64,000 nucleotides of DNA, from assembly GCA_002104905.1 (NCBI GenBank), contig MCFE01000141.1, forward strand, positions 92,973 to 156,972. The letters run 5' to 3'. The notes beneath the pieces are model-generated. The model made no database searches. It saw only the letters and a program-made list of their open reading frames with translations, and was not told where the DNA came from. Positions 720 to 64,000 of the stretch are shown in pieces; the stretch's first letter is position 1, and each line of letters opens with the position of its first letter. A program made the position numbers and the translations under genes. The stretch comes from Basidiobolus meristosporus CBS 931.73 (taxonomy: Eukaryota; Basidiobolomycota; Basidiobolomycetes; Basidiobolales; Basidiobolaceae).

Positions 720-750
720 GGTTAAGAGCCCCAAGCTGTCACTCTCTGCA

Positions 751-1347
751 ATGTCTACTACTGCTATTACTGCAATTCCTCTCTCTGCTGAAAATTTGGA
801 TGGATCTAACTACCAAGTGTGGAACGTGAAGATGAAGATGCTGCTACAAGAAAGAGGCCTTTGGGATATTGTTATGGAAGAAGAATACCCTCCTAAAAGT
901 GTGGGAGAGGAAGCCTTAAAGTACCAGAAGAAAGAACAAAGTGCCTTTAACTGCATTTGCCTTAATGTCAAGGACAAATTGCTGATTCAATGCTCAAGAG
1001 CAAAAACAGCAAAGAATGCCTGGAAAGCATTAGAAGACACCTACCAGTCATGTTCAGCTGCCAAGAAAATGTATCAGAGACAAAAATTCTTTACTACAAA
1101 GATGCTGCCAGGAGAAGAAATGAAAAATCCAATTAACAGAATTACCCAGCTGGTAGATGAGATGGAATCTGTGGGCGTACCAACTATTGATGAGAATGTG
1201 AAAGCTATCATTGTGAATAGCCTGACAGACAAGTTTCAGGGCCTTGTATCAGCCCTAGAGTCCAGAACTGAAGATTTGACCTTAAATTATGTATATGAAA
1301 GGCTCCTGGATGAAGAATTAATAAAATCAAGTGCCATTAAGAAGTAA
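751..1347 (+). pseudogene. Copia Gag, element A
   Basis: 198-codon gag region starting at the ATG of 'ctgcaatgtctacta', the start shared by the other copies. It carries the copia gag-polypeptide signature: DGSNYQVW followed by KMKMLLQERGLWDIV near the N-terminus and a DEMESVGV helix later. A stop after SSAIKK (1345-1347) ends this frame, whereas in the copy at 6387 the frame continues into a CCHC zinc knuckle (CNYCKRKGHTSDRC). Here that knuckle lies just downstream and has lost its last Cys (SDHSLKK). Gag packages the RNA into virus-like particles in the cytoplasm. This copy cannot make a full Gag-Pol. Confidence 0.75.
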
Positions 1348-6324: not shown

Positions 6325-6386
6325 AAGCTGTCACTCTCTGCAATGTCTACTACTGCTATTACTGAAATTTTTCCTCTACTGAAAAG

Positions 6387-7403: not shown

Positions 7404-7411
7404 CTCTATAT

Positions 7412-43983: not shown

Positions 43984-44018
43984 GCACAGGTTTAGGATGG
44001 TGAGAAAAGCATAAACTG

Positions 44019-47000
44019 ATGATGCATTTTGTGCTCAAAATACTTGCCATTGCTGGTGTAGTTACCGCCTATACGATTACTGACAAATGCATTAACCAGT
44101 GTATTAGTACAGTTGGGGACGAATATGTTCCAGGATTCTCATTGGAGCAGGACAGTGATACGTTCAAAGAGAGTCAGTATTATTATTGCGATAAGAGCTT
44201 CCCCGATAACGCAAAGATCAACCAAGATATGACAGACTGTTTTTTGGCGAATTGCAATCCTATGGCAATGATGGATTTCATAATGTTGAAGCCATTAATC
44301 TGCGATATGATTGCAACCACTACAGAAGCACCGACTTCAACAAAAACAATCGAGACAACTGTGGCCACTACTACTACTGCAGTACCAACTACCAGTTCTA
44401 GAACAACGCAACCGCCGTTGACCACAGATGCCTCAACATCTACGGAGATGAGCCAGTCTTCACCTACCACAGACACTGCCGACACCTCGACATCACCATC
44501 GGCCGAGACCACAAACACCGCCTCCCCTACAGAATCAAGTGAGACGGCTACAACCCCTATGCCAACCACAGAAATTACGAACACTTCCACAACAGAGCCA
44601 ACAGAGACGGTTACTCCTAATGAATCTACCGATACTACAACCACTTCAGATCTACCTACTGACTCGGAAACCGTAACTCCGCCAACTACCCATACCACTG
44701 ATGCTCCTACCACAACAACAACTGACGCCACTGACACTCCCACACCCACAGAGTCAAGTGAGACGGTTACCACACCAGAACCAACCACTGAAACTACGGC
44801 CTCCCCCACAGCAACAGGACCAACAGAGACAGTTACTCCAACGGAATCTACTGACGCTACTACTACTTCAGGACCATCCACTGATTCTGAGACTGTCGCT
44901 CCACCAACTACCGGCACTACTGATGCTCCTACCACAACAACAACTGACACCACTGACACTCCCACACCCACAGAGTCAAGTGAGACAGTTACCACACCAG
45001 AACCAACCACTGAATCTACGGGCACGCCCACAACAACAGTCCCAACAGAGACAGTCACTCCTACGGAATCTACCGACACAACTACTACTTCAGAGTCATC
45101 CACGGATTCTGAAACTGTGACTCCACCAACTACCGATTCTACCAATGCTCCAACCACAACATCCACTGACACCACTGACACTACCACACCTACGGAGCCA
45201 AGCGAGACAGTTCCAACCCCCGTACCAACCACCGAAACCACGGCCACCCCCACAACAACAGAACCAACAGAGACAGTCACTCCTACGGAATCTACTGACA
45301 CAACTACTACTTCAGAGTCATTCACGGATTCTGAAACTGTAACTCCACCAACTACCCATTCTACCAATGCTCCAACCACAACATCCACTGACACTGTCAC
45401 ACCCACAGAGCCAAGTGAGACAGTTACCACCCCGGTGCCAACTACAGAAACCACGGACACCCACACAGCAACAGAACCAACAGAGACAGTCACTCCAACG
45501 GAATCTACTGACGCTACTACTACTTCAGGACCATCCACTGATTCTGAGACTGTGGCTCCACCAACTACCGGCACTACTGATGCTCCTACCACAACAACAA
45601 CTGACACCATTGACACTCCCACACCCACAGAGTCAAGTGAGACGGTTACCACACCAGAACCAACCACTGAAACTACGGCCTCCCCCACAGCAACAGGACC
45701 AACAGAGACAGTTACTCCTACGGAATCTACGGACACAACTACTGCTTCAGAGTCATCCACGAATTCTAAAACTGTGACTCCACCAACTACCGATTCTACC
45801 AATGCTCCAACCACAACATCCACTGACACCACTGACACTACCACACCCACAGGATCAAGCGAGACGGTTACCACCCCAGAGCCAACCACTGAAACCACGG
45901 CCACCCCCACAACAACAGAACCAACAGAGACCGTTACTCCTACAGAATCTACTGATGCTACTACTACTTCTGAATTGCCAACTGACTCGGAAACTGTAGC
46001 TCGACCCACTACAGATACTACTGTTGCTCCAACCACAACATCCACTGACACCACTGACACTACCACACCCGCAGGACCAAGCGAGACGGTTACCACCCCA
46101 GAGCCAACCACAGAAACCACGGCCACCCCCACAACAACAGTCCCAACAGAGACAGTTACTCCTACAGAATCTACTGACGCTATTACTACTTCTGAACTGC
46201 CAACTGATTCGGAAACTGTATCATCGCCAACTACCGATACTACTGATGCTCCAACCACAACATCCACTGACACCACTGCCACTGCCACACCCACGGAGCC
46301 AAGTGAGACGGTTACCACCCTAGAGCCAACCATAGAAACCACTGACACCCCCACAGCAACAGGACCAACAGAGACGGTTACTCCTACAGAATCTACTGAC
46401 GCTACTACTACTTCTGAACTGCCAACTGACTCGGAAACTGTATCATCGCCAACTGCCGATACTACTGATGCTCCAACCACAACCTCAATTGACACCACTG
46501 GCACTCCCATACCTACAGAGTCAAGTGAGACGGTTACAACCCCCGTACCAACCACAGAAACCACTGTCACCCTCACAACAACAGGGCCTACAGAGACAGT
46601 TACTCCTACGGAATCTACTGACGCTACTACTACTTCAGAACTACCCACTGACTCAGAAACTGTATCATCGCCAACTACCGATACTACTGATGCTTCAACC
46701 ACAACAACTGGTATCACTAACACCGTCACACCCACAGAGTCTAGTGAGACCTCTACAACCCCAGAACCATCCACCGAAACTACGGACACACCTACAACAA
46801 CAGAGCCAACAGAGACAGCTACTCCTACGGAATCTACTGACGCTACTACTACTTCAGAACTACCCACTGACTCAGAAACTGTAACTTCGCCGACCATCGA
46901 TACTACTGATGCTCCAACCACTACATCAACTGGCATCACTAACACCACCACACCCACAGAGTCTAGTGAGACGGTTACAATCCCAGAACCAACCACAGAA

Positions 47001-50000
47001 ACTACGGATTCCTCCACAGCAACGGAAACAACAGAGACTGTAACTTCTATGGAATCTACGGACACAACTACTGCTTCTGAACTACCAACTGACTCGGAAA
47101 CTGTAATACCGCCAACTACTGACTCTACTATTGCTCCAACCTTTACATCAACTGACACCACTGCTAGTGCCACAGTCACAGAGTCGAGTGAGACGGTTGC
47201 AACCCCTGTACCAACCACTGACACTACGGACACCCCCACAACAATAGAGCCGACAGAGACTGTTTCTTCTGCGGAATCTACTGACGCTTCTACTACTTCA
47301 GAACTACCTACCGATTCAGAAACTGTATCTCTACCAACTACTGATACTACTGATGCTCCAACCACAACAACTGGCACCACTAACACCGCCACACCCACAG
47401 AGTCTAGTGCGACGGTTACAACCCCAGAACCGACCATCGAAACTACGAACACACCCACAACAACTGAACCAACAGAGACAGTGACTTCTATGGAATCTAC
47501 GGACATAACTACCACTTCAGAGCCATCCACTGATTCAGAAACTGTAACTCCGCCAACTACTGACACCACTGTTGCTCCAACCTCTACATCAATTGACACC
47601 ACTAGCACTGCCACAGTCACAGAGTCAAGTGAGACGGCTACCACCCCAGAACCGAGCACAGAAACTACGGACTCCCCCACAGCAACAGAAACAACAGAGA
47701 CCATAACTCCTACCGAGTCTGGGGATGCCACTACCTCTTCGGAATCATTCATTGACTCAGAAACTGTAACCCCGCCAACTACCGATACTACTGATACTCC
47801 AACCACAACAATAAGTGGCACTGCGACGCCTACAGAGCCAAGTGAGACAGCAACAACCCCGGTACCGACTACAGAAACTACGGACACAACTACTGCTTCA
47901 GAATCATCCACCGGTACTACAACTACTTCAGATCTACCTACTGATTCGGAAACCGTAACTCCGCCGACTACCGATACCACTGATGCTCCAACCACCACAT
48001 CAGCCGACACCACTGACCCTGCTACACGTACAGATTCAAGTGAGACGTTTACCACCCCAGAACCGAGCACAGAAACCACGGACGCCCCCACAACAACAGA
48101 GCCAACAGAGACAGTTACTCCAACGGAATCTACGGACACAACTACTACTTCAGAATCATCCACTGATTTTGAAACTGTGACTCCACCAACTACCGCCACG
48201 CCTACCGAATCAAGTGAGACGGGTACAACCCCGGTACCAACCACCGAAACTACGGACACTCCCACACCAACAGAGACCATTACTCCTACGCAATCTACTG
48301 ACACAACTACTACTTCAGGACCATCCACTGATTCTGAGACTGTGGCTCCACCAACTACCGGCACTACTGATGCTCCAACCTCAACATCGGCAGAGACAAC
48401 GAACACTGCAACACCTACAGAGTCAAGTGAGACAGCAACCACGCCGGTACCGACTACAGAAACTACGGACACAACTACTGCTTCAGAATCATCCATTGGT
48501 ACTACAACTACTTCAGATCTACCTACTGATTCGGAAACCGTAACTCCGCCGACTACCGATACCACTGATGCTCCAACCACCACATCAGCTGACACCACTG
48601 ACCCTGCTACACGTACAGAGCCAAGTGAGACAGTCACCACCCCAGAACCAACTACAGAAACCACGGCCACCCCCACAGTAACAGAACCTACAGAGACAGT
48701 TACTCCAACAGAATCTACGGACACAACTACTAGTTCTGAACTACCAACTGACTCGGAAACTGTATCTCCGCCAACTACCGATAGTACTGATGCTCCAACC
48801 ACAACAACAACTGACGCCACTGATACTCCCACATCCACAGAGCCAAGTGAGACGGCTACCACCCCAGAACCAACCACTGTAACTACGGACACCCCCACAA
48901 CGACAGAACCAACAGAGACAGTTACTCCCACGAAATCCACTGACACAACCACTGCTTCAGAGTCATCCACTGATTTAGAAACTGCGACTCCGCCAACTAC
49001 CGATACCACTGATGCTCCTACCACAACAACAACTGACGTCACTGACACACCCACACCCACAGAGTCAAGTGAGACGGTTACCACCCCAGAACCAACCACA
49101 GAAACCACGGCCACCCCCACAGCAACAGAACCTACAGAGACAGTTACTCCTACGGAATCTACGGACACAACTACTAGTTCTGAACTACCAACTGACTCGA
49201 AAACTGTATCTCCGTCAACTACCGATACTACTGATGCTCCAACTACTACATCAACTGACACCACTGCTAGTGCCACAGTCACAGAGTCGAGTGAGACGGT
49301 TACAACCCCTGTACCAACCACTGACAATACGGACACCCCCACAACAATAGAGCCGACAGAGACTGTTAATTCCACGGAATCTACTGACGCTTCTACTACT
49401 TCAGAACTACCTACCGATTCAGAAACTGTATCTCTACCAACTACCGATACTACTGATGCTCCAACCACAACAACTGGCACCACTAACACCGCCACACCCA
49501 CAGAGTCTAGTGAGACGGTTACAACCCCAGAACCGACCATCGAAACTACGAACACACCCACAACAACTGAACCAACAGAGACAGTGACTTCTATGGAATC
49601 TACGGACATAACTACCACTTCAGAGCCATCCACTGATTCAGAAACTGTAACTCCGCCAACTACTGACACCACTGTTGCTCCAACCTTTACATCAACTGAC
49701 ACCACTGCTAGTGCCACAGTCACAGAGTCGAGTGAGACGGTTGCAACCCCTGTACCAACCACTGACACTACGGACACCCCCACAACAACTGAACCGACAG
49801 AGACTGTTTCTTCTGCGGAATCTACTGACGCTTCTACTACTTCAGAACTACCTACCGATTCAGAAACTGTATCTCTACCAACTACCGATACTACTGATGT
49901 TTCAACCACAATATCAACTGACACTGCCACACATACAGGGCCAAGTGAGATGGTCACCACCTCCTTACCAATTACTGAGCCTACGAGCACTTCCAAAGTA

Positions 50001-52571
50001 ACAGCAACTACAGGAACTGTTACTGCTACTGAATCTGTGGACACCACCACTTCTTCAGAACTATCTAGTGACTCTGAAACCGTAACGCCGTCAACTACTG
50101 GTTCGACTGGTGCTCCAACCACATCATCAACAGAGACTATGGTCACTGCCACATCTATGCAACCAAGCGAGACAGTTACCGCACCGGTTCCAACTACAGA
50201 AACTATCGACACTCCTACGACTACGGGCACAACAGAGACTGTCACTCCAACAGACTCTATGGACATCACCACTTCTTTGGAATCATCCACTGATTCAGAA
50301 ACTGTAATTCCGTCAACCACTGACACTATTGATAATCCATCCGCAACATCTACAGAAACAAGCGAAACGGTTACCACCCCGGCGCCAACCGCAGAAACTA
50401 CGGAAACTACCACATCACTGAAGCCAACTACTGATTCAGAGACCACTCTAACTCCGACAAAAACGGATACAGCAACCGAAACCACCGAGATCATCGCATC
50501 AACTGAATCGGCATCAACCACAGTGGACGAAACTACTCAATCTGCTCCTATCACAGTAACCTCGGCATCGACGGGAACCACACTGACTGAGTCAATGGAG
50601 ACTACTGCTACGTCGGTTACTACTACTGGCACTTCAATATCTACTGACACTTCAGGCACAGTCACGACTACTGAGTCCACAGAGATTATAACTACCGATA
50701 TCCCAATATCAACATCAACCGAGACTACAGACACTGCCACACAAACAGATCCAGCTGAGACGGTTCCAGTGCCAACCACAAATACTTCGGATCTATCTGC
50801 ATCGACGGAAACCACGGACACTACTACGCCTACCGAGCCAACGGAGACTACCGTCACATCAGTTCCAACTACCGCTTCAGAAACTGCCCACCCACCACCC
50901 ACAACAGACATTACAGACATTCCAACATCAACAACAGAGACTACAGACACGGCTACACCTATTGAATCTACAGAGACTACCATCAATTCAACATCAACAG
51001 CAACTGTGGACACAATCACACCTGTTGAATCTACCGAGACTACCACTTTACCTTGCACATCAAACACTACTGATAACCCGTCCTCCATAGAAACTGCTAA
51101 CACTAACACACCCACCGATACTGTGACAACCATTATCACGTCAGTGCCTTTACCTGACTCTGAAAGTACTCAAGCTCCATCTACCACAGACACTGCTGGG
51201 AACTCTGTATCGACGGAATGTACGGAGGTTGTGACACCTACAGAGCCAACAGAGGCTAATTCCACAGCATCGCCAACAGTTACTCAACCCCCGCCAAATA
51301 CAGACACTATGGGCACTTCAACATCAACTGAAACTAGAGATACAATGGCGTCCACCACTTCTAAAACTACTGTCACGACAGATAGTCCAGCATCCGAGTC
51401 AATGAATGCCACTACCCCACCAGCGCCAACTAGTAGTTCTGAACCTACTCAGCCTACAACAACAGTGGTTACAAGCGACACCAATACCTCAACAGAAACA
51501 GAGTCAACAGAGGCTACTCAGACTGCTGAAACCACCGGAACAGAAACAATTGGCACACCAGCATCATCTATTGATTCAACAGCTACTCAGTCTGCATCTA
51601 CTCCAGACACCACCAAGACAATAGAGTGCTCGACATATTCATCTGACTCTACTGTTACTGAAGAGAGTTCCAGAACCATAGGAACCGTAGAGAACAGCCA
51701 GACCCCTCAATGCTCCAAAACTACTGATACAGTGGCTACCACAGATATTTTTGAAACGTCGTGTACGACTGGGACTTTCGTAACTGTTTCCACGGACACT
51801 TCTTCGTTCTCGCAGAGTACAAAGACTGTACAATGTACCGATAATACCAAAACTAGTGAGACCTCCAAACACACACAAACCCCAGACTCCACATTCGTCA
51901 CGGTGTCCTCGCAGGCAACCAACCCGACCGGTACTACAGAATCAGCATCAAACACGCTCGAAGTTACCGGCTGCACATCCCAACCCACCGGTACGATGAT
52001 TGCCACATGTACCTTAAAGCCCACGATAACTGCTGATACTCAAAAGCCTTCGGATACGGCTACTATGAAGCCTACAATCACTACTATGACTTCATGTACA
52101 ACCAAGACTACTGCGATCACCGACGCTCAGACAACTGAGTTAACATCAACCGGATGTGTGGATCCTACCGACTCTCCCAAGACAACCGTGGAGTGTGAAA
52201 AGCCCACCACGACTTACAAGCCTTCCGACTCTTTCGCCACTGGGACTCGTACCCCTGCTGAGGGAGGGAAATGCACAGAGACTATTAGCACCACGATTAC
52301 CAGTGTATCTTGTGAAGGGTATAAGTCTACAACATGTAAGCGCCCAACAGCTACGATCACAGTCACATCCATCTTCACTGTAACCGTCACCACCGAGTCC
52401 CTCCCGGAATCCACCGAATCCTCATGTGAGCACGGAGCCTACAAATGTGTCAACTCTGGAGAGACCGGCGAATTCACAATATGCTCTCATGGCAAACTAT
52501 TCAAGCAGAACTGTGCTAGAGGTACAGTCTGCCGAGCATTCCAAGACTCGATCATCTGTGATTGGGCATAA
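44019..52571 (+). CDS. Giant secreted Thr/Ser-rich repeat protein with chitin-binding domain
   Basis: A single-exon, 2,850-aa secreted mucin-like protein. Residues 1-~18 are a signal peptide (two adjacent ATGs; either may be used). Residues ~19-110 form a small domain with six Cys (DKCINQC, YYYC, MTDC, ANC, LIC). Then come about 27 tandem repeats of ~74 aa (typical core SETVTTPEPTTETT, PTETVTPTESTD, TDSETV), running to about 50,350, followed by ~700 aa of irregular Thr/Ser-rich sequence with scattered Cys. The last ~48 residues (CEHGAYKC, CSHGKLFKQNC, GTVC, IICDW) have the six-Cys spacing of CBM19 chitin-binding modules. The Thr-rich part is presumably O-mannosylated, giving a stiff rod. Likely role: cell-wall adhesin or matrix protein holding chitin. 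No GPI signal or transmembrane segment is seen. Confidence 0.85.
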   Translation: MMHFVLKILAIAGVVTAYTITDKCINQCISTVGDEYVPGFSLEQDSDTFKESQYYYCDKSFPDNAKINQDMTDCFLANCNPMAMMDFIMLKPLICDMIATTTEAPTSTKTIETTVATTTTAVPTTSSRTTQPPLTTDASTSTEMSQSSPTTDTADTSTSPSAETTNTASPTESSETATTPMPTTEITNTSTTEPTETVTPNESTDTTTTSDLPTDSETVTPPTTHTTDAPTTTTTDATDTPTPTESSETVTTPEPTTETTASPTATGPTETVTPTESTDATTTSGPSTDSETVAPPTTGTTDAPTTTTTDTTDTPTPTESSETVTTPEPTTESTGTPTTTVPTETVTPTESTDTTTTSESSTDSETVTPPTTDSTNAPTTTSTDTTDTTTPTEPSETVPTPVPTTETTATPTTTEPTETVTPTESTDTTTTSESFTDSETVTPPTTHSTNAPTTTSTDTVTPTEPSETVTTPVPTTETTDTHTATEPTETVTPTESTDATTTSGPSTDSETVAPPTTGTTDAPTTTTTDTIDTPTPTESSETVTTPEPTTETTASPTATGPTETVTPTESTDTTTASESSTNSKTVTPPTTDSTNAPTTTSTDTTDTTTPTGSSETVTTPEPTTETTATPTTTEPTETVTPTESTDATTTSELPTDSETVARPTTDTTVAPTTTSTDTTDTTTPAGPSETVTTPEPTTETTATPTTTVPTETVTPTESTDAITTSELPTDSETVSSPTTDTTDAPTTTSTDTTATATPTEPSETVTTLEPTIETTDTPTATGPTETVTPTESTDATTTSELPTDSETVSSPTADTTDAPTTTSIDTTGTPIPTESSETVTTPVPTTETTVTLTTTGPTETVTPTESTDATTTSELPTDSETVSSPTTDTTDASTTTTGITNTVTPTESSETSTTPEPSTETTDTPTTTEPTETATPTESTDATTTSELPTDSETVTSPTIDTTDAPTTTSTGITNTTTPTESSETVTIPEPTTETTDSSTATETTETVTSMESTDTTTASELPTDSETVIPPTTDSTIAPTFTSTDTTASATVTESSETVATPVPTTDTTDTPTTIEPTETVSSAESTDASTTSELPTDSETVSLPTTDTTDAPTTTTGTTNTATPTESSATVTTPEPTIETTNTPTTTEPTETVTSMESTDITTTSEPSTDSETVTPPTTDTTVAPTSTSIDTTSTATVTESSETATTPEPSTETTDSPTATETTETITPTESGDATTSSESFIDSETVTPPTTDTTDTPTTTISGTATPTEPSETATTPVPTTETTDTTTASESSTGTTTTSDLPTDSETVTPPTTDTTDAPTTTSADTTDPATRTDSSETFTTPEPSTETTDAPTTTEPTETVTPTESTDTTTTSESSTDFETVTPPTTATPTESSETGTTPVPTTETTDTPTPTETITPTQSTDTTTTSGPSTDSETVAPPTTGTTDAPTSTSAETTNTATPTESSETATTPVPTTETTDTTTASESSIGTTTTSDLPTDSETVTPPTTDTTDAPTTTSADTTDPATRTEPSETVTTPEPTTETTATPTVTEPTETVTPTESTDTTTSSELPTDSETVSPPTTDSTDAPTTTTTDATDTPTSTEPSETATTPEPTTVTTDTPTTTEPTETVTPTKSTDTTTASESSTDLETATPPTTDTTDAPTTTTTDVTDTPTPTESSETVTTPEPTTETTATPTATEPTETVTPTESTDTTTSSELPTDSKTVSPSTTDTTDAPTTTSTDTTASATVTESSETVTTPVPTTDNTDTPTTIEPTETVNSTESTDASTTSELPTDSETVSLPTTDTTDAPTTTTGTTNTATPTESSETVTTPEPTIETTNTPTTTEPTETVTSMESTDITTTSEPSTDSETVTPPTTDTTVAPTFTSTDTTASATVTESSETVATPVPTTDTTDTPTTTEPTETVSSAESTDASTTSELPTDSETVSLPTTDTTDVSTTISTDTATHTGPSEMVTTSLPITEPTSTSKVTATTGTVTATESVDTTTSSELSSDSETVTPSTTGSTGAPTTSSTETMVTATSMQPSETVTAPVPTTETIDTPTTTGTTETVTPTDSMDITTSLESSTDSETVIPSTTDTIDNPSATSTETSETVTTPAPTAETTETTTSLKPTTDSETTLTPTKTDTATETTEIIASTESASTTVDETTQSAPITVTSASTGTTLTESMETTATSVTTTGTSISTDTSGTVTTTESTEIITTDIPISTSTETTDTATQTDPAETVPVPTTNTSDLSASTETTDTTTPTEPTETTVTSVPTTASETAHPPPTTDITDIPTSTTETTDTATPIESTETTINSTSTATVDTITPVESTETTTLPCTSNTTDNPSSIETANTNTPTDTVTTIITSVPLPDSESTQAPSTTDTAGNSVSTECTEVVTPTEPTEANSTASPTVTQPPPNTDTMGTSTSTETRDTMASTTSKTTVTTDSPASESMNATTPPAPTSSSEPTQPTTTVVTSDTNTSTETESTEATQTAETTGTETIGTPASSIDSTATQSASTPDTTKTIECSTYSSDSTVTEESSRTIGTVENSQTPQCSKTTDTVATTDIFETSCTTGTFVTVSTDTSSFSQSTKTVQCTDNTKTSETSKHTQTPDSTFVTVSSQATNPTGTTESASNTLEVTGCTSQPTGTMIATCTLKPTITADTQKPSDTATMKPTITTMTSCTTKTTAITDAQTTELTSTGCVDPTDSPKTTVECEKPTTTYKPSDSFATGTRTPAEGGKCTETISTTITSVSCEGYKSTTCKRPTATITVTSIFTVTVTTESLPESTESSCEHGAYKCVNSGETGEFTICSHGKLFKQNCARGTVCRAFQDSIICDWA
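44740..50350 (+). repeat. ~222-bp coding tandem repeat array
   Basis: About 27 in-frame units, mostly 222 bp (74 codons), with a few shorter units (for example near 47,830-47,900 and 48,190) that keep frame. Multi-unit blocks recur: the pair of units near 47,160-47,580 is nearly repeated at 49,260-49,690, and a short-unit motif at 47,870 recurs at 48,450. This indicates unequal exchange or gene conversion. Confidence 0.85.
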
Positions 52572-55690: not shown

Positions 55691-55761
55691 CAGGTCTAAA
55701 CACGCACAGTGTTCTTCAGTTTTTACCACGTCCCTTCTGAAACCGTAGAATCTTGATCCAA

Positions 55762-57441
55762 ATGCTTAGGTTACTAGCTTTATTTCACTCAATACTGGTG
55801 CTCTTTCCTGGAACAACGCAGGCTTCTCCAATAGTGAAGAGGCAGGATTTTTCTGACAACACCGCCATCCTACTGCAAGGGGGAACGTTTATTACCTATA
55901 ATGAGACAACAGCTTCTCTCGAGGTAATTAATGGTTCTATGCTAATCATTAATGACACGATAGTCGAAATTGGAGCCAATCTCCCAAATCTCCCACCCCA
56001 CATCGAAATCGTCAACGTTACTGGCCGAATTATCACTCCCGGGTTCGTTGATACTCATCGTCATGGTTGGCAGACTGCGTTCCGCACACAGGGGGAAGAT
56101 CTCACTTTGGGCCGATATTTCTACACATTTGCTAATTTTGGTGCAGCTGCGCAAATATTCGATGCAGAAGACGTCTACATAGGACAGCTCATGGGCTTGT
56201 ACGAGGCCATCGATGCTGGTGTGACCAGTATCGTAGATCACGCACACCACACCTGGTCAAAAGAAACGGCTCAGGCGGGGCTTCAAGCATCTATTGATAG
56301 TGGAAATCGGGTTTGGTGGTGCTACGCAGTTCAACCCGTGCCTATTCAGAGCGACCCGTATGTATTGGACAAAAATACTACATCGTGGCAACTAGCTCAG
56401 ATTGCAGAAATGGTCACCAACAGGCCCTTGACCGGTGATCGAGTGAATATCGGCCTCGCGTATGATCAGTTGAACCTTCCGGAGGAGGAGGTTGCCAGCA
56501 TATTCGAGTTCGTCAAGTAAGATATCACAGAATGCCCCCTCGTGGTTCACCCAATAACTCGTATTCACAGAAAGCAAAATCTGTCGCTCATCACAACCCA
56601 CTACCTAGGGGGAGTATTTCAAGGTATGTTATAGTTCCCTGACGCCAAATAGTTCACTATGTTTACACACACGCGCTTGCTAGGCGAGTTTCATTCGATC
56701 GAAGTGCTAGACAAATACAGGCTGCTGGATATCGACACTCCTATTATTGTCTCTCATGCCTCATATATCACGCCGCAGGAAATAGAACTTCTTCGAAAGG
56801 CCAACCAGTATATATCCATCACCTCGGAATCAGAGATGCATTATGGCCATGGACATCCATATAGCTACAGTATTCAGGACCAGGGGTCCCTCGGGATAGA
56901 TACACACTTTACTTTCTCCTCTGATATTATCACCCAGATGAGAATGAACATGCAAACCACCAGGCTCACCATGTACAAAATGACTATTGAGCAAGGCCAT
57001 TTGCCGTCAAATACCGGTATGACCGTCAACCAAGCCTTTTTGATGGGGACTAGGAATGGTGGGCTTGCACTGAGAAGGGACGATATCGGCGTCTTGAAGG
57101 TCGGTGCGAAAGCTGACATAGTAGTCTTCGATACCAATCGACCAGGCCTGTTGGGATGGAAGGATGCTGTCGCCGCCATTGTATTGCACGCGAACACTGG
57201 GGATATCGAGCATGTTATAGTGGACGGAAAATTTCGAAAGAGAGACAGGAGACTGGTTGATGTTGATTGGATCACTTCTCAGGACCGCTTCCTGCGCAGT
57301 GCCGCTAAGATCTCAACCGCAATGGGAAAGGTTAACTTTGCAGCAATAAAGGATGGCGTTTTTGGACAAGTTCTTGGATATACTGACAGCCTTTTTGCAA
57401 AGACCCCCGAGGTGAACGTTACACGTGGCCCTTCTACTTGA
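55762..57441 (+). CDS. Secreted amidohydrolase, TRZ/ATZ-type (3 exons)
   Basis: Metal-dependent hydrolase of 521 aa. Exons 55762-56516, 56571-56623 and 56684-57441; introns 54 and 60 bp. The ATG at 55762 begins a clear signal peptide (LLALFHSILVLFPGTTQA), followed by a Kex2-like KR site at residues 26-27. The amidohydrolase fold signatures are present: GRIITPGFVDTHRH with metal ligands H99 and H101, a middle His in LITTH (encoded by the small exon 2), a further His in IVSHAS (H294), and a late Asp in TFSSD. The C-terminal GAKADIVVFD is the typical second half of the composite beta domain. Relatives include guanine/cytosine deaminases and s-triazine hydrolases; most are cytosolic, so secretion is unusual. 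The substrate is not predictable. Confidence 0.85.
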
Positions 57442-57939: not shown

Positions 57940-58181
57940 TTAGATTTAGGGGAGGAAAAGTCACCAAGTTGGTGAAATTTTTATGTGCTTTTAAGAACTA
58001 ATCGAAGTACAAACAAAGAAGCCAATTAAGAGGTAGAGAACCTCTCTAATAAGTAATCTAATTATGCTTTGATTCATGTCCAATTATGGTGTCAATAAAA
58101 TAAAGTTCATCAGGTGTAAATATGCAAATAATAACCTTAAGTAAGTCCTAAGATGCAATCCCCCATGCAACTCCCATATTC
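57940..58181 (-). mobile_element. Terminal LINE-related unit 1 (short)
   Basis: Begins (+ strand) with a TTTAGGGGAGG seed and the shared 3'-end sequence 'aagtcaccaa...ggtgaaat'. The remaining ~200 bp have no ORF. It is probably a 5'-truncated copy of a diverged family member, and is the most internal unit of the array. Confidence 0.6.
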
Positions 58182-59170
58182 TTTAGTTTAGGGGGAGGGA
58201 AAGTCACCAAGGTAGGTGAAATCTTTATTTGATTTCAGACAAGTCTAACTACAAATAAAGAAGCCAGCTGGGAATAGAAGATTCCCAAAGTAAACACTAA
58301 GTTGAATATGAATAAATCTAAGCTAAAGTTAAGGCAGTATCCCAGTGTACACTGGAGTTCAGGTTCATGGGGGAGTGAAGTAGATAAGCTTGAGAGATAT
58401 AATAATCTTTTAGGAAGTGGGTAACAGCAGGTGAAGGGGAGTTTTTGATAAGTGAAGTAAATCTGGAGAGCAGAGATTCCCTTAATGAGAAGGTCTCATA
58501 AACTGGAGAATCAGGAAACTCTTTAAAGGCATGGTCAGTAGGTTCCCAGAAAAACTGATCAGAGATATTTTGAGAGAATTGTTTAGCAATACTTTTGTCA
58601 AGTACTACCTCCACAATGTGATGGTTGATAAATCTCATGTTAACAATCTTGGATAAATTATAACCTTGTTGCTTGAGATACATCCTATGCTCAGATATAG
58701 GAATAAGCTCCACATTGGCAAAGTAGCAGACAGCCCAGTCAGTAGCAGGAGGCAAATCAGAAGTGGCAGGAAACTTTCTTTTAGTCTTGGGAGGAGCAGC
58801 AGGGTGTCTTGAGGAAGCACGAACAGACTTTTTGACAGTTTCAGAGTAGGAAGAGTGAGCAGGAGCAGATGGTACTTGTGGAGTCTTGTTGACAGGAAGA
58901 GTTTGCACAGGGACAATAGATTCTTGCAGATCAGAGAAGGCAGAAAACAGCTTTTGAACTTGTTTATTAAGTAGAGCATTTTCAGCTTCAACAAGTGCAA
59001 GCCTTTCTTCAAGGAAAGAAATCTGAAGGGAATGGAGTGAAGGCATAAGATATAAGAAAAGAGGGTAGGATGGGGAGGGTGGGTGGGAATGTTAGCAGGG
59101 AGATGAGAAGGAAGGAGCAAAAATTCAAGAAGTCAGAATTTATAGATGGATGGACAAGGGTAGATGGAGA
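58182..59170 (-). mobile_element. LINE-related unit 2, ORF1-only element
   Basis: Begins with a degenerate telomeric seed (tttagtttaggggg) and the shared hairpin end, and carries one complete ORF1-like gene but no reverse transcriptase. Upstream of the ORF (toward 59170) is a pyrimidine-rich ~120-bp leader, so this may be a full-length non-autonomous element of ~990 bp rather than a truncated LINE. The next seed follows at 59171. Confidence 0.65.
58318..59046 (-). CDS. LINE ORF1-like RNA-binding protein
   Basis: Intact 242-aa ORF with an ATG. The N-terminal ~35 residues form a coiled coil (FLEERLALVEAENALLNKQV), followed by a Ser/Pro/Lys-rich linker. From ~95 comes a small folded domain (LPPATDWAVCYFANVELIPI, then LSKIVNMRFINHHIVEVVLD) that aligns with the ORF1 region of the long LINE copy (LPPASTWTVVYLKQVPWTPI; LSRIVNLAWRKGKILEVILD). 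It is probably a nucleic-acid chaperone that coats element RNA, like ORF1p of other LINEs. The domain resembles an RRM by pattern only. The frame is undamaged, in contrast to ORF1 of the outermost copy. Confidence 0.65.
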   Translation of the reverse strand: MPSLHSLQISFLEERLALVEAENALLNKQVQKLFSAFSDLQESIVPVQTLPVNKTPQVPSAPAHSSYSETVKKSVRASSRHPAAPPKTKRKFPATSDLPPATDWAVCYFANVELIPISEHRMYLKQQGYNLSKIVNMRFINHHIVEVVLDKSIAKQFSQNISDQFFWEPTDHAFKEFPDSPVYETFSLRESLLSRFTSLIKNSPSPAVTHFLKDYYISQAYLLHSPMNLNSSVHWDTALTLA

Positions 59171-59530
59171 GTTAGGGGGGAGGAAAGTCACCAAGTGGTG
59201 AAATCTTTATTTACTTATGACAAGTATTTAAAGTAGCCAATTTAATCTGAAGTAATACCTAGTAAGCTAGGTCTGAGAGATATCTTCCTGGTAAGCCAGG
59301 TCTGAGAGTTGAGAAGCTGAGTGGTACTGTATTTCCTAGTTAGCTAGGTCTGAGAGATATCTTCCTGGTAAGCCAGGTCTGAGAGTTGAGAAGCTGAGTG
59401 GTACTGTATTTCCTAGTTAGCTAGGTCTGAGAGAGGTTTCCTGAAAAGCCAGGCCTGAGAAGTGAAAATCTGAGTATATCTGAGGTCAGTTGTACTTGTT
59501 TGCGGTAGCTGAATTGTGGCTGTTGTGGCC
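59171..59530 (-). mobile_element. LINE-related unit 3 with tandem repeat
   Basis: Starts with GTTAGGGGGG seed and the shared 3' hairpin (59188-59201). The body is mostly a tandem repeat of 77 bp with no ORF. It ends where the next seed (AGGGTTGGGG) begins at 59531. Confidence 0.6.
59265..59460. repeat. 77-bp tandem repeat
   Basis: Copies start at 59265, 59342 and 59419 (the third is partial and diverged). Each contains two versions of the short motif 'aagcYaggtctgagag'. The first two copies are essentially identical, which suggests recent duplication. Confidence 0.85.
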
Positions 59531-60147
59531 AGGGTTGGGGGGGGGAGACAGTCACAAACAGGTGAAATCTTTATTCTGGTTGAAACAAAGAAGCTAGCAC
59601 TACTGTTGTGGCTTTGATACAAGAGTGTGTAGCTGAGGGGAATTTGTAGGTAAGCTTACAAGAAGTGATGATAGTTCTTCAGTGCTCAAGACACTGTTCA
59701 GTGGGAAGGGGGGTAGCAAGAGGGGTAAGAATGATTTGTGAACAACATTAATGAGGGGAACATGATATGGATTGATATTCATCATAAAGGGAGTGTGCTG
59801 CTGCAGATATTGCTGCCAAAGGTCTGTCAAGTACTTCAGGTAGGCCAGTTTGGGTTTTTCTGACTGCAGAATATAGTGAGCAAACTTCTTGACTTCAGGA
59901 TCTCCAAGTATAGTTCTCCAGCAGGAGCCAGGTGTAGTGTGGTGTGTTCTCTTCCAGGCCTTGACTAGTGGGCTGTTGAGTGGTGAAGTATGAGATATAA
60001 TCTGGTTCTGAGGTAGAATAGTCTGATCTTGTAGGGCATAAAACCAAAAGCACCAAGAATAGCATGTCTGTAGGGGCATTCAGGCAGATGAGGCACCAGA
60101 GATGTAATGCACCAGACTGCAAACTTGTCAAGTTTAGTGCAGTCTCT
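59531..60147 (-). mobile_element. LINE unit 4, 5'-truncated copy
   Basis: Nearly the same sequence as the last ~600 bp of the long LINE copy (60150 onward), with shared hairpin and 3' UTR. The ORF2 C-terminus (59600-~60147, minus) is frameshifted near 59985. Homology to the long copy stops at 'agtctctag' (60148-60149), where telomeric GGTTAGGG follows. This is a classic 5' truncation. Confidence 0.85.
59600..60147 (-). pseudogene. LINE ORF2 C-terminal fragment
   Basis: C-terminal part of the LINE ORF2 (KAWKRTHHTTPGSCWRTILG ... LHTLVSKPQQ stop) with one frameshift. It lacks endonuclease and RT domains because of the 5' truncation. Confidence 0.8.
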
Positions 60148-60180
60148 AGGGTTAGGGGGGAGACAGTCACCAACAGGTGA
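60147..60180. other. Telomeric seed and 3' hairpin of the long LINE
   Basis: TAGGGTTAGGGGGGAGAC is followed by TCACC-AACA-GGTGA (60167-60180). Equivalent hairpins occur at 57961-57975, 58204-58219, 59188-59201 and 59552-59565. Confidence 0.8.
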
Positions 60181-60214
60181 AATCTTTATTTCAGTTGAAA
60201 CAAAGAAGCCAGCG

Positions 60215-62983
60215 CTACTGTTGTAGCTTTGATACAAGAGTGTGTAGCTGAGGGGAATTTGTAGGTAAGTTAATAAGAAGTGATGATAGTTCTTCAGTGC
60301 TAAACACACTGTTCAGTGGGAAGGGGGGTAGCAAGAGAGGTAAGAATGACTTGTGAACAACATTAATGAGGGGAATGTGATAAGGATTGATATTCATCAT
60401 AAAGGGGGTGTGCTGCTGCAGATATTGCTGCCAAAGGTCTGTCAAGTACTTCAGGTAGGCCAGCTTGGGTTTTTCTGACTGCAGAATATAGTGAGCAAAC
60501 TTCTTGACTTCAGGATCTCCAAGTATAGTTCTCCAGCAGGAGCCAGGTGTTGTGTGGTGTGTTCTCTTCCAGGCCTTAATCAGTGGGTTGTTGCAGTTGT
60601 GAAGTCTGAGGTATAATCTGGTTCTAAGGTAGAGAAGTCTGATCTTATAGGGCATAAACCCAAAAGCACCAAGAATAGCATGTCTGTAGGGGCATTCAGG
60701 CATATGAGGCACCAAGGAGGTAATGCACCATACTGCAAACTTGTCAAGCTTAGTGCAGTCTCTAGAAGTAAGAGAGAGAAGTGGTAAGCCAAATTCCAGG
60801 ACAGGGAAGACAAACTGCTTGAGTAGAAGGAGGCAGCTTGGAGCTGAAGTTGTAGGAGGAGTAACAGCCAGTAGCTTGTGGAGTGCCTGTCTTGCCAGGA
60901 TAATTCTCTTCTTCAGGTGTGCTCCAGAGTCTAGTCCAGTAGGAAGGAAAGGAAAGCCAAGATATGTAGCAGAAACCTGAGCAGGTAGAGTGGAGTTCTC
61001 CAAGTTGATGGGAGAGCCCAAAGGTACTGTCTTTGCAATGGAAAGCTGGAGATTATTCTTCTGCAGATACTGGTGGATGGTCTGGGAGTCTTGTTGCACA
61101 TTGGAGGAGGATATTCTGATGTCATCAGCAAAGAGAGTAACCAGGCAGTCAGCTGAGAGTCTTGGGAAATCATTCAGGAAGATGGCAAACAGTATAGGAC
61201 CAAGCACAGAGCCTTGAACCACTCCATTAGGAACTGAGAACACAGCTGATTGCTCACTTGGGTGCAGAATTCTTGCTTGTGGATCCAGAAACAGAGACCT
61301 GACAAGGAGGGTGAGAGAGGTATTGGAGAAGCATTGCAACTTGGACCAAAGCAGATTTCTGTCAACTGAATCAAAGGCCTTAGTAATATCAAACAGTACT
61401 GAGGGATACTTGCACTGGAGAGAGTGATCTTGGCTAAGTATGACTGCATATTCCAAGGAGAGGCCAGGAACAAAGCCAAACTGTGCAGGATGAAACTTGA
61501 GGGAGTCAGAGTAGAGCTCCTGAGCAAGCAGAAGCTCAAACACCTTTCTGCAGGTGGGCAGCAGAGATATTGGCCTGTAGGAGCTAGGATCCAGGTGCTT
61601 TCCTTTACCCTTGTACAGTGGCAGAACATTTGCAAAGGACCATTCCTCAGGAGTAGAAAGCTGGGCTGAGCATTGCTGAAACAGTGGAAGCAGAAGTGCA
61701 GACATGGCCTTGGTACTAGTCTTCAGAAGCTCATAAGAGATTGTGTCCACACCTGGAGCAGTAGAGTTGGGAAGCCTCTTGAGCACATTATGGATTCTCC
61801 TTTGATCAAGTGCAAGTGGGATGGGCAGAGTCTTGAAGTCAGGATGAAAGCCAGGAGTTGAGTACTGCTTTGTAGAGAAGAAGATGTTAGCCAGCTGTTC
61901 TGTTGAAGGTAACTTCCTGGAAGAGGGCCTCATTGCCCTGTAGAGTCTTGATACTGTTCTTGTTATAGAGTTGGAAGATTGCAGAGGCAAAGAACTCATA
62001 ATATGATCCCAGAGCTGAGTATGCAGAGTGTGGTGAATTGCCTTGGAGTGGTGTATTGCTGTCAGGAGGAGTTTCTCTGTTTTTGGGTTAGGGAAACTCA
62101 GGTAGCTTTGTTGCAGGGCTGAAACAATAGATTCCCATTTTCTTGAGGTAACAGCAGTAGTCTTGCATGGCAGTGAGAGGGAGGCAGACACCAGAATCAG
62201 ATGCTTCACAAAGAGCCAGGCATAGTTGAGATCATCTGGCAGAGAAAGTAGCAAACTGGCAAGCTTCAAGTAGTTCCCAAAGTCTTTCTTCTGAGTCTTG
62301 GTAGCTTTGTGGGTGAGCACAGTAAGTTTTGGCAGCTTCTTCTTCACAACTGGTTCCATAGAAAGGGACCAGGCTGGGTGGTCAGAGGCTCTCAAGGATC
62401 CTAACTCAGCTCCAGAGAATTGCTTAACTTCATTCACAAAGTAGAGGGCAGCAGCAGAAGGGCAGATCCAGTCAACACATCTTTTCTCAGATTGAGCACC
62501 TAGTGCTAGCAGGTGGCTTTCTCTCAGGAAGTTCAGTAGGAATGTAGACCTTGGCTTCATTCTTGCAGTCAGAGTAGTCTTGTTCTCAGGATGGGGAATG
62601 TTGAGATCTCCAAGCAAGATAACAGGTGTTGATATAGATTGCTGGTATTGCTGAACCTTCTGGCATATAACTTGCACTTCCTGAAGGGCAAGACTTGGAG
62701 GCAGATAGCAGAGCACCAGACTGATAGTTGGCAACTGGAGAGCAGCACAGTAAGGGGAGTAAAGAGGAACACAGAGCTGAGGAGTATTGATGGTAGAAGA
62801 GATGAAGCAGATAGAGGAGGTATTCTTTGTTCTAGGAGTAGAAAAGCAATATAGATTAGTCAAAAGTATAGAAGGTAGCTGAACATCAATCAAACACAGG
62901 AGGGAAAATCTTGAAAGAAGTCTCTCTAGAGTTGGTCTTGATGGCTGTATGCTGTTGCAGTTAAGCAACAGAACTACAGGTAG
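60215..62983 (-). CDS. LINE ORF2: endonuclease and reverse transcriptase
   Basis: Open frame of 922 codons with no stop. The N-terminal ~210 aa resemble an APE-type endonuclease (NCNSIQ; ILLGDLNIP; CVDWI; RASDHPAW), but where these enzymes have a Gln-Glu pair (QET/QEP) the sequence reads VQLP, so the catalytic Glu appears absent. RT follows: KGKGKHLDPSSYRPISLLP, DITKAFDSVDR, GVVQGSVLGP and the catalytic LFADDI, all present. No RNase H or zinc knuckle is seen. The frame has no ATG near its start; it is in the same frame as the end of ORF1 and separated from it by one TGA (62986-62984), so expression by readthrough or reinitiation is likely. The product makes cDNA in the nucleus. Confidence 0.82.
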   Translation of the reverse strand, partial: LPVVLLLNCNSIQPSRPTLERLLSRFSLLCLIDVQLPSILLTNLYCFSTPRTKNTSSICFISSTINTPQLCVPLYSPYCAALQLPTISLVLCYLPPSLALQEVQVICQKVQQYQQSISTPVILLGDLNIPHPENKTTLTARMKPRSTFLLNFLRESHLLALGAQSEKRCVDWICPSAAALYFVNEVKQFSGAELGSLRASDHPAWSLSMEPVVKKKLPKLTVLTHKATKTQKKDFGNYLKLASLLLSLPDDLNYAWLFVKHLILVSASLSLPCKTTAVTSRKWESIVSALQQSYLSFPNPKTEKLLLTAIHHSKAIHHTLHTQLWDHIMSSLPLQSSNSITRTVSRLYRAMRPSSRKLPSTEQLANIFFSTKQYSTPGFHPDFKTLPIPLALDQRRIHNVLKRLPNSTAPGVDTISYELLKTSTKAMSALLLPLFQQCSAQLSTPEEWSFANVLPLYKGKGKHLDPSSYRPISLLPTCRKVFELLLAQELYSDSLKFHPAQFGFVPGLSLEYAVILSQDHSLQCKYPSVLFDITKAFDSVDRNLLWSKLQCFSNTSLTLLVRSLFLDPQARILHPSEQSAVFSVPNGVVQGSVLGPILFAIFLNDFPRLSADCLVTLFADDIRISSSNVQQDSQTIHQYLQKNNLQLSIAKTVPLGSPINLENSTLPAQVSATYLGFPFLPTGLDSGAHLKKRIILARQALHKLLAVTPPTTSAPSCLLLLKQFVFPVLEFGLPLLSLTSRDCTKLDKFAVWCITSLVPHMPECPYRHAILGAFGFMPYKIRLLYLRTRLYLRLHNCNNPLIKAWKRTHHTTPGSCWRTILGDPEVKKFAHYILQSEKPKLAYLKYLTDLWQQYLQQHTPFMMNINPYHIPLINVVHKSFLPLLLPPFPLNSVFSTEELSSLLINLPTNSPQLHTLVSKLQQ

Positions 62984-63803
62984 TCAGGCAGAGGTTGTAG
63001 CTTCTTCAGAGGCAGCATTGATAATGTGACCTGCAGAGTCCCAGAGCTCTTCAAATGGTGCATCACTTAAGTCAGCAAGGAGGGAAATGGCATGGTTCTT
63101 GAGGAAGTATGCCACATCATAGGAGGGGGCTTGTCTCTTGATGGCAGCAAAGAAAGACAGAATGGCAACATGCGCTGGAGGCTTGTTGAACAGTAGAGAG
63201 TAGAGGATTCAGATTCTTCAGGCACTATCTTGAAGTCAGTTTCAGCCAGTTAAGGTTCTTCTCCACAAAGGCAACAAATGGGTCAGCAATGTTTTGGTCT
63301 AGGATAACCTCCAGAATCTTCCCTTTTCTCCAGGCCAGGTTGACAATTCTTGAGAGCTGAATATTGCATGCCTTGAGTGCTTTCCTGATGTTGGAAATGG
63401 GAGTCCAGGGAACTTGCTTCAAGTACACCACAGTCCAGGTAGAAGCTGGTGGTAGGTTTGCTGGGGGCTTGTAAGTCCTTCTGTGTTGCAATGGAGCTGC
63501 AGTAGTCAGATTGGAGTCCACATTCTCAGTAGAAGGTTTTCTTGATGTGTCTTGCTGAATAGTACTGGAGCTGGATGTGCTGATAATTCTTGCTAGAACC
63601 TTGCCTGCATAAGTCTGAGGTATAGCTGAGGTGACTGTAGAGGTGTTGGCAGCTGGTGCAGGTGGAGAGGCAGAAACTGAAGCAGGAACTGAGGTCACCT
63701 GGGAGAAGGCAGTGGAAGCAGGTTTTCTGGGAGGAACAGAGTTCACTATCCAGTTGTTCTGTAAAGCACTGGAGTAGCTTTTCTGTGGAACAGGATCTTG
63801 CTC
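62984..63803 (-). pseudogene. LINE ORF1 of the outermost copy, frameshifted
   Basis: The open frame from the telomere junction (EQDPVPQKSYSS...) runs through a Pro/Ser/Thr-rich region to the conserved ORF1 domain and stops at 63225. Alignment with the intact ORF1 at 58318-59046 shows that the true C-terminus continues in other frames (DFKIVPEESES, then LLFNKPPAHVAILSFFAAIK, ending EEATTSA at 62987), implying two small indels near 63235 and 63200. No ATG exists before the telomere. The final segment ends at the TGA that separates it from ORF2. Confidence 0.65.
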
Positions 63804-64000
63804 TTAGGGTTTAGGGTTAGGGTTAGGGTTAGGGTTAGGGTTAGGGTTAGGGTTAGGGTTAGGGTTAGGGTTAGGGTTAGGGTTAGGGTTAGGGTTAGGG
63901 TTAGGGTTAGGGTTAGGGTTAGGGTTAGGGTTAGGGTTAGGGTTAGGGTTAGGGTTAGGGTTAGGGTTAGGGTTAGGGTTAGGGTTAGGGTTAGGGTTAG
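63804..64000 (+). repeat. Telomere, TTAGGG repeats
   Basis: One TTAGGG, one extra T, then an uninterrupted (TTAGGG)n array from 63811 to the window end (about 32 repeats). Orientation (G-rich strand 5' to 3' toward the right) shows that this is a chromosome right end. Confidence 0.97.

What the first reader, a model, noticed from the sequence alone, without database searches (positions are those of the whole stretch)
57940..64000. Chromosome end built from head-to-tail, telomere-seeded LINE units
Seen: five consecutive units, all with the RNA 3' end toward the centromere, each starting with a TTAGGG-like seed (TTTAGGGG, TTTAGGGGG, GTTAGGGGGG, AGGGTTGGGG, TAGGGTTAGGGG) and the same hairpin-containing 3' end; at least one unit is 5'-truncated, and the outermost is capped by true telomere. 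Known parallels: Drosophila HeT-A/TART, Bombyx TRAS/SART, Chlorella Zepp, Magnaporthe MoTeRs. Inference: cDNA synthesis is primed from the telomeric 3' end, alternating with telomerase, so this element family extends or repairs chromosome ends. The element's domain set and ORF1-only partner look distinct from the families I know.
Basis: partly seen in the sequence, partly recalled or inferred. Interest (0 to 1): 0.92.

Follow-up and report, generated by a model that had tools for sequence, protein, structure and literature searches.

The report
Chromosome ends built by fungal LINEs
In the fungus Basidiobolus meristosporus, assembled chromosome ends carry head-to-tail retrotransposon copies that face the same way and mostly start on a very short TTAGGG seed, which likely means that each copy was reverse-transcribed straight onto an exposed chromosome end.

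Summary
Confirmed and extended. The window is a contig end of Basidiobolus meristosporus CBS 931.73. Five head-to-tail units, RNA 3' end inward, each start on a TTAGGG-like seed; a ~200-base telomere caps the outermost. A 20-base piece of the 3' end occurs 693 times genome-wide. Of the first 100 listed, all 38 on contigs of at least 50 kb lie within 18.3 kb of the contig end on the RNA-5' side. Of 163 distinct junctions in the DNA I fetched, 149 have T(n)A directly before the G-run and 143 hold at most two telomere repeats. One interior array was found.

At least five unit types share little beyond an AATAAA-hairpin-C-tract 3' module: a ~4.6-kb two-ORF LINE, an ORF1-only element under purifying selection, a ~0.53-kb short unit and two more. 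The LINE has an APE-type endonuclease domain (catalytic Glu replaced by Asp) plus RT. The fungal telomeric LINEs in the papers I read are of the MoTeR/CRE type with another endonuclease. A single in-frame TGA CTA separates ORF1 from ORF2 in 20 of 20 copies examined. Telomerase is encoded too. Priming from chromosome ends is the best inference, not shown. New variant of a known kind.

The parts
57945..58186 (-). Unit 1: short unit with E-type 3' end (seed TTTAGGGG at 57945; 3' module 57949-57985)
58187..59170 (-). Unit 2: ORF1-only element (C type), seed TTTAGGGGG at 58187, 3' module 58192-58228
58321..59091 (-). ORF1-like frame of unit 2 (257 aa stop to stop; predicted coiled coil and the conserved 'LPP..W' region shared with ORF1 of the LINE)
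59171..59530 (-). Unit 3: 5'-truncated B-type short unit (seed GTTAGGGGGG; 3' module 59176-59212; 77-bp tandem repeat 59258-59475). Complete-looking copies elsewhere are ~527 bp.
59531..60146 (-). Unit 4: 5'-truncated copy of the two-ORF LINE (A type; seed AGGGTTGGGG...; 3' module 59540-59576)
60147..63803 (-). Unit 5: 5'-truncated A-type LINE (seed TAGGGTTAGGGGGG; 3' module 60155-60191), capped by telomere
60218..62983 (-). ORF2 of unit 5, 922 aa open frame: N-terminal APE-type endonuclease domain (E to D at residue 33; D126, N128, D171, H202 kept), reverse transcriptase (FADD), C-terminal domain
62984..62986 (-). In-frame TGA followed by CTA between ORF1 and ORF2 (the same in 20 of 20 copies examined)
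62987..63803 (-). 3' part of ORF1 of unit 5, in two frames (62987-63208 and 63228-63803)
63804..64000 (+). Terminal (TTAGGG)n, 197 bases, to the end of the contig

Best explanation
The window ends in five head-to-tail units of a telomere-restricted family of APE-type LINEs and their non-autonomous partners, which were likely laid down one after another by reverse transcription primed from the 3' end of a very short telomere seed on a truncated chromosome end. Shown by sequence: orientation, seeds of mostly one or two repeats, 5' truncations of many lengths, a shared 3' module (AATAAA, 5-bp hairpin, C-tract) in at least five unit types, a telomere cap on the outermost unit, near-exclusive location at contig ends, and a telomerase gene in the same genome. 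Inferred steps: (1) an end that is broken, eroded or left by an incomplete cDNA gets a few bases of TTAGGG, probably from telomerase; (2) the RT encoded by the two-ORF LINE binds the 3' hairpin of any family RNA, whose C-tract (and following UAA) would pair with the G-rich 3' overhang; (3) copying runs outward and often stops early, leaving a new 5'-truncated end; (4) telomerase caps that end with ~140-240 bases, or a further unit is added. ORF2 is predicted to be made by reading through TGA CTA, or by restarting at a non-AUG codon.
For: Location and orientation: 38 of 38 family-A 3' ends on contigs >=50 kb within 18.3 kb of the contig end on the RNA-5' side, where about 10% would fall by uniform placement (the 100 first-listed of 693); ORF1-only copies 58 of 59, D type 28 of 28, A-type ORF1 region 14 of 14 within 20 kb. 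Seeds: 149 of 163 distinct junctions carry T(n)A directly before the G-run, 143 of 163 hold at most two telomere-like repeats. The junctions differ from copy to copy, so they record many separate additions. Caps: 15 terminal arrays of 141-242 bases in the fetched DNA, 14 of them next to sequence from loci fetched for a unit. Shared 3' module in five unit types. APE+RT protein, predicted to fold like LINE-1 ORF2p over its length. Telomerase RNA-binding domain present, two pieces over Pfam's cut-off. G-run length varies (4-12, mode 6 in 51 of 102 A-type junctions), as expected if a G-rich primer slips on a C-tract.
Against: No insertion was observed; all is read from one assembly. The endonuclease domain is kept at 48-80% ORF2 identity between relatives, which a purely end-primed element would not need. 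Short inter-element seeds are also known for MoTeR, which carries its own endonuclease, and tracts of three or more repeats break there (passages of PMC7367193): short seeds may therefore be what survives, not what was there. A few junctions have long seeds (8 repeats at one in L132) and 14 of 163 lack T(n)A. 11 of 87 copies lack TTAGGG within 25 nt. The seed register starts with TTA most often, as in the caps (49 of 134 against 8 of 15), but this does not tell telomerase-made seeds from RNA-templated ones. The stem never covaries (0 of 5 pairs). At least one tandem duplication (1430 bp, L017/L018) shows that recombination adds units too.
Confidence: 0.68

Rival explanations
1. Endonuclease-dependent insertion into telomeric repeats, as described for SART/TRAS and MoTeR: the APE domain nicks a TTAGGG array and primes there. 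The distal array is later lost and re-formed, and long interstitial tracts are trimmed by breakage, leaving at most two repeats.
For: The APE domain is kept, with most catalytic residues. MoTeR arrays look alike in layout: stable inter-element tracts of at most (TTAGGG)2 although MoTeR has a REL endonuclease (passages of PMC7367193).
Against: 143 of 163 junctions have at most two repeats, while caps are 141-242 bases: insertion into caps should leave many long inner tracts unless nearly all were trimmed. The catalytic Glu is Asp in 4 of 4 clade members that reach the column, Glu in 21 of 21 others. Many seeds sit directly on truncated unit sequence.
Confidence: 0.2
2. The arrays grow mainly by recombination or break-induced replication among ends; reverse transcription happened rarely.
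For: Identical repeated units occur (1430-bp spacing in C476, L017/L018; 120-bp spacing at C2:259992-260232).
Against: 163 distinct junctions remain after removing identical ones among 198 matches, with truncation points spread over the element; five unit types are interleaved in varied order.
Confidence: 0.08
3. Ordinary LINEs that insert anywhere and merely survive near telomeres, or an assembly artefact that gathers repeats at contig ends.
For: The assembly is a draft of 1311 contigs; some contigs end inside a unit (L045, L048, L050, L051, L059); one interior array exists (C558 around 97.9 kb); 644:49 strand bias shows that contigs are mostly oriented telomere-right.
Against: Repeat-broken contigs would carry units in both orientations at their ends; 38 of 38 and 100 of 101 agree in orientation. 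TTAGGG at the junction is not expected from random insertion. Of 17 contigs between C1 and C269 that carry a telomere array of the kind searched, at least 13 carry a unit (the other 4 could not be read).
Confidence: 0.04

Closest known systems
MoTeR1/MoTeR2 (Magnaporthe oryzae)
   Same: Telomeric LINE plus shorter partner sharing the 3' end; 5' end toward the chromosome end; head-to-tail arrays with short TTAGGG tracts; 5'-truncated copies capped by telomere (passages of PMC7367193).
   Different: MoTeR1 has a REL (restriction-enzyme-like) endonuclease; here APE type, two ORFs, at least five unit types, hairpin 3' module.
FoTeR (Fusarium oxysporum) and Cnl1 (Cryptococcus)
   Same: Fungal, chromosome-end arrays, telomeric motifs at junctions, 5' tandem repeats (PMC12857005 abstract and sections 3, 16, 18, 19; PMC12810828 passages).
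   Different: Both group with MoTeR1/CRE; FoTeR has a REL domain and 3.0-8.0 TAACCC copies at its 3' end. Cnl1 also inserts into a gene with 0-13 bp duplications.
SART1/TRAS1 (Bombyx, R1 clade)
   Same: APE-type two-ORF LINEs in telomeric repeats of a host with some telomerase (recalled; passages of PMC10088271).
   Different: SART1 couples its ORFs by UAAUG (passages of PMC5972666); here one in-frame TGA and no nearby AUG. SART/TRAS lie within longer arrays and carry poly(A) (recalled).
HeT-A/TART/TAHRE (Drosophila)
   Same: Head-to-tail addition with RNA 3' end inward; an ORF1-only element (HeT-A) next to RT-bearing ones; truncation and re-extension (recalled; listing of PMC5537684).
   Different: No TTAGGG and no telomerase in Drosophila; oligo(A) junctions. 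Here telomere seeds, C-tract, telomerase present.
Zepp (Chlorella), GilM/GilT (Giardia), endonuclease-independent L1 at mammalian telomeres
   Same: LINEs at chromosome ends; L1 can use uncapped telomeres as primer without its endonuclease (reference titles seen; rest recalled).
   Different: Zepp has poly(A) tails (recalled); GilM/GilT belong to the CRE clade; L1 events are occasional, not a genome-wide end structure.

Membership tests
APE-type LINE (non-LTR retrotransposon) | N-terminal AP-endonuclease-like domain and RT in one ORF2 | tested here: met
   RVT_1 3.6e-25; Exo_endo_phos_2 3.5e-4, below its cut-off; model like LINE-1 ORF2p E 1.5e-28, AP endonuclease 8ka5 E 1.7e-6; D126, N128, D171, H202 kept but E to D at residue 33
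MoTeR / FoTeR / CRE clade | REL endonuclease (CCHC + RHD/N motifs) C-terminal of RT | tested here: not met
   no C-x-C-H-C pattern, RHD/RHN or R/KPD in ORF2; APE domain instead
MoTeR / FoTeR / CRE clade | RT groups with MoTeR1, Cnl1, SLACS, CRE | not tested
   no labelled reference RT sequences on hand
SART/TRAS (R1 clade) | Two ORFs with coupled translation at UAAUG | tested here: not met
   TGA CTA, first ATG of ORF2 at codon 142
SART/TRAS (R1 clade) | Inserted inside long telomeric arrays | tested here: not met
   143 of 163 junctions hold at most two repeats
SART/TRAS (R1 clade) | RT belongs to the R1 clade | not tested
   no labelled reference RT sequences on hand
HeT-A/TART-like telomere elements | Head-to-tail, RNA 3' end inward, at chromosome ends only | tested here: met
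   one interior array as exception
HeT-A/TART-like telomere elements | Replace telomerase (no telomeric repeats, no telomerase) | tested here: not met
   TTAGGG caps; telomerase RBD match
LINE/SINE-like pair sharing a 3' hairpin | Non-autonomous unit shares only the 3' tail with the LINE | tested here: met
   alignment of A-E 3' ends; 5-bp stem without covariation, so the hairpin itself stays a prediction
Telomere-end-primed retrotransposition | cDNA primed by the chromosome's 3' overhang | not testable with these tools
   needs new insertions or an in vitro assay

The most novel reading that the evidence does not exclude
In this early-diverging fungus, telomere upkeep is shared between telomerase and a guild of retroelements: one APE-type LINE supplies the RT, an ORF1-only element supplies a Gag-like protein kept by selection, and short units ride along, all recognised by one 3' module and added to ends that have lost all but one or two TTAGGG repeats. 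That would be an independent invention of a HeT-A/TART-like end-repair system working beside telomerase, with ORF2 made by TGA read-through.
Probability: 0.3. Interest if true: 0.85.

Novelty: new variant of a known kind. Interest (0 to 1): 0.62.

Why it matters
LINEs that build chromosome ends are thought to mirror how telomerase and retrotransposons are related. The fungal cases I found in print belong to one lineage with a restriction-enzyme-like endonuclease. An APE-type, two-ORF lineage doing the same in Basidiobolus would be a separate origin in fungi, beside a working-looking telomerase gene. With hundreds of copies and a short defined 3' module it is a system in which seed length, primer use and the need for the endonuclease could be tested directly. 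The cut-off of two repeats agrees with what was reported for stable MoTeR junctions, which hints at a general limit on interstitial telomere length.

Tried and rejected
Considered and set aside: (a) a CRE/MoTeR-type element, rejected because ORF2 has an APE domain and no REL pattern; (b) loss of telomerase, rejected by the telomerase RBD match; (c) target duplications at interior loci: the only interior place that turned up, C558, is a seeded array of three units, so a former end, a fusion or a misassembly; (d) RNA-templated against telomerase-made seeds: the register comparison with caps does not separate them; (e) covariation of the hairpin: none; (f) ORF1 structure: mean pLDDT 57 and no PDB match at E <= 0.001, only a coiled coil and a beta-alpha-beta-beta-alpha stretch are readable; (g) RT clade: not resolved, because no labelled LINE reference set was available and homologs beyond the first five are 20-39% identical.

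Limits: copy counts are exact-match lower bounds; alleles and haplotigs are not separated; the 62 of 100 places on contigs under 50 kb were left out as uninformative; I gave 78 of 152 matches (those with contig lengths on hand plus two of unknown length), 33 of 40 and 14 of 40, and contigs under 40 kb or of unknown length were dropped there. The dN/dS figures are 17 of 91 possible pairs among 14 best-scoring copies, a choice that favours open frames.
Full report
What the sequence is. A methyltransferase encoded in the window matches a protein of Basidiobolus meristosporus CBS 931.73 at 100% over 91% of the query, on a contig of 156972 bases, the length of the contig that holds the window. The window is the last 64000 bases of that contig, and the contig ends in (TTAGGG)n. 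The genome held is 89.0 Mb in 1311 contigs.

The five units. Going outward from 57945, five units each begin with a telomere-like seed and a related 3' end. The body of the units differs: E type (57945-58186), an ORF1-only C type (58187-59170), a truncated B type with a 77-bp repeat (59171-59530), a truncated A type (59531-60146), and a longer but also 5'-truncated A type (60147-63803) capped by 197 bases of telomere. The A type is a LINE: ORF2 of 922 aa with RVT_1 at 3.6e-25 and a weak endonuclease match below Pfam's cut-off. The AlphaFold2 model (mean pLDDT 80.8, pTM 0.68) matches human LINE-1 ORF2p best (E 1.5e-28, TM-score by query length 0.45) and, for the endonuclease, an Arabidopsis AP endonuclease (E 1.7e-6). 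In an alignment of 29 proteins the endonuclease Asp, Asn, Asp and His positions (126, 128, 171, 202) are kept, while the metal-binding Glu is Asp in the 4 members of this clade that reach the column and Glu in all 21 others that do (that these are the catalytic positions is recalled from LINE-1).

Complete copies elsewhere. A search with the ORF1 region found 40 scored matches among 132 candidates. In 20 of 20 fetched loci ORF1 is followed by TGA CTA. In copies L062 and L064 both ORFs (523 and 922 aa, stop to stop, same frame) are open except for this TGA; three other copies that I read (L061, L063, L065) carry a further stop or frameshift. ORF2 has no ATG before codon 142, that is, after the endonuclease motifs. 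Relatives differ: P0001 (62% identical) starts with Met close to the ORF start, whereas P0002, P0003 and P0004 are predicted to begin further in. Read-through of TGA is thus predicted (that TGA CTA favours it is recalled), and restarting at a non-AUG codon is not excluded. The element is about 4.6 kb in L062. Its 5' end recurs as ...aatttaaagagg before the next seed, with ~100-bp repeats in several copies, and its 5' UTR holds TTAGGGTTAGGGTT on the + strand.

Where the copies are. One 20-mer of the A-type 3' end has 644 forward and 49 reverse exact copies, control 0; the B-type 20-mer has 404 and 27, control 0. Of the first 100 A-type places listed, 38 are on contigs of 50 kb or more; all 38 lie 0.3-18.3 kb from the contig end on the RNA-5' side. 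Using contigs of at least 40 kb with known length, 58 of 59 ORF1-only copies, 28 of 28 D-type 3' ends and 14 of 14 A-type ORF1 regions lie within 20 kb of that end (parts of the lists). The exception, C558 at 98 kb of 218 kb, is a head-to-tail array of three seeded units, which looks like a former end, a fusion or a misjoin. In a sample not chosen by the element, 17 contigs among C1-C269 carry a telomere-array start of the kind searched; 11 have the A motif, two more a C or D unit, and four (C35, C81, C208, C249) show no exact A or B motif and could not be read.

The junctions. In all DNA fetched, 198 3'-end matches reduce to 163 distinct junctions. T(n)A stands directly before the G-run in 149; 143 hold at most two telomere-like repeats in all; 20 are scored as longer, some of them because the flank is GT-rich. 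By exact matching, seeds of 3 (30), 7 (24), 9 (19) and 6 (17) bases before the G-run are commonest among 162. Terminal caps are 141-242 bases (15 caps). The G-run in A-type junctions is 6 long in 51 of 102, range 4-12, with two at 0. The seeds lie on truncated unit sequence as well as on other DNA. Passages of the MoTeR paper PMC7367193 report that stable inter-element tracts there reach at most (TTAGGG)2 and that longer ones break, so the same bound here may reflect survival.

The shared module. The A, B, C, D and E 3' ends share AATAAA(G/A)ATTTCACC, a 4-6 base loop, GGTGA(C/T)T and a C-tract, and little upstream. RNAalifold gives a 5-bp stem with no covarying pair and one broken cell. The units therefore look like one recognition group: a LINE, an ORF1-only element, and short units. 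In 14 of 14 fetched ORF1-only copies the same 242-aa frame from the MPSLHSLQ start is open, with dN/dS 0.17-0.41 in the 17 pairs printed; these were the best-scoring copies, so open frames are favoured. A stretch of ORF1 aligns between the LINE and the ORF1-only element (29% overall).

Telomerase. Two adjacent pieces of the telomerase RNA-binding domain score 40.5 and 34.7 bits, cut-off 25, at C880. Whether the gene is intact was not tested.

How it most likely works. Shown: arrangement, orientation, seeds, module, location, protein domains. Inferred: an exposed end with one or two TTAGGG repeats pairs with the C-tract of an element RNA, ORF2 protein copies it outward, stops early or at the 5' end, and telomerase or another unit follows. 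I put end priming at 0.68, endonuclease-dependent insertion with later trimming at 0.2, growth mainly by recombination at 0.08, and ordinary LINEs or artefact at 0.04.

Comparison with print. Seen: FoTeR paper PMC12857005 (abstract and sections 3, 16, 18, 19), passages of PMC7367193, PMC8381367, PMC12810828, PMC10088271, PMC5972666, PMC4700185, PMC10234402; the rest only as search listings. FoTeR, MoTeR1 and Cnl1 group with CRE-type elements, and FoTeR and MoTeR1 have a REL domain. My searches for Basidiobolus with telomere and retrotransposon terms and for telomere-specific non-LTR elements in fungi or Mucoromycota listed no paper that by title or abstract start describes a telomeric LINE in Basidiobolus; subscription papers and preprints outside the library were not searched. 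Five close relatives of ORF2 (48-80% identity) come from sources without organism names, and an ORF1 relative at 55% over 68% is from B. ranarum.

Verdict. A real, genome-wide, telomere-restricted LINE system: new variant of a known kind, with an independent lineage and several unusual traits. The mechanism remains inferred.

Noticed in passing
window 44004-52571 (+): 2855-aa open frame rich in Thr/Ser/Pro with ~222-bp tandem repeats, starting with a hydrophobic stretch after its first Met: looks like a mucin-like surface or wall protein.
   Followed up: no
window 454-1347, 6366-8428, 34135-34926 (+): Pieces that look like Copia-type gag-pol (recalled motifs such as YVDD, integrase-like and RNase H-like stretches); not searched.
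   Followed up: no
window 55741-57441 (+): Two open frames that look like an amidohydrolase gene (one or more introns), about 500 bases inside the first unit: the innermost clear gene next to the array.
   Followed up: no
whole genome: Telomere repeats and units are almost all on the + strand of contigs (8002:103 for the TTAGGG 18-mer), so contigs seem oriented telomere-right; probably an assembly convention, unexplained.
   Followed up: no
L061-L065 5' UTR; loci: A-type 5' UTR holds TTAGGGTTAGGGTT, the B-type 5' end AGGGTTAGGGATAACC and the C-type 5' monomer CCTAACCCAGG: telomere-like motifs near the start of three unit types, perhaps binding sites for a telomere-repeat protein in their promoters.
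   Followed up: partly
G000:C558 around 97.9 kb (L180): Interior head-to-tail array of three seeded units: a candidate former chromosome end, fusion or misjoin.
   Followed up: partly
G000:C476 108484-109914 (L017, L018): Two A-type 3' ends with identical upstream flank spaced exactly 1430 bp, i.e. a tandem duplication inside an array.
   Followed up: no
G000:C979 (both ends) and C370 (both ends): Units at both contig ends in opposite orientation, candidates for near-complete chromosomes or large terminal-to-terminal contigs.
   Followed up: no
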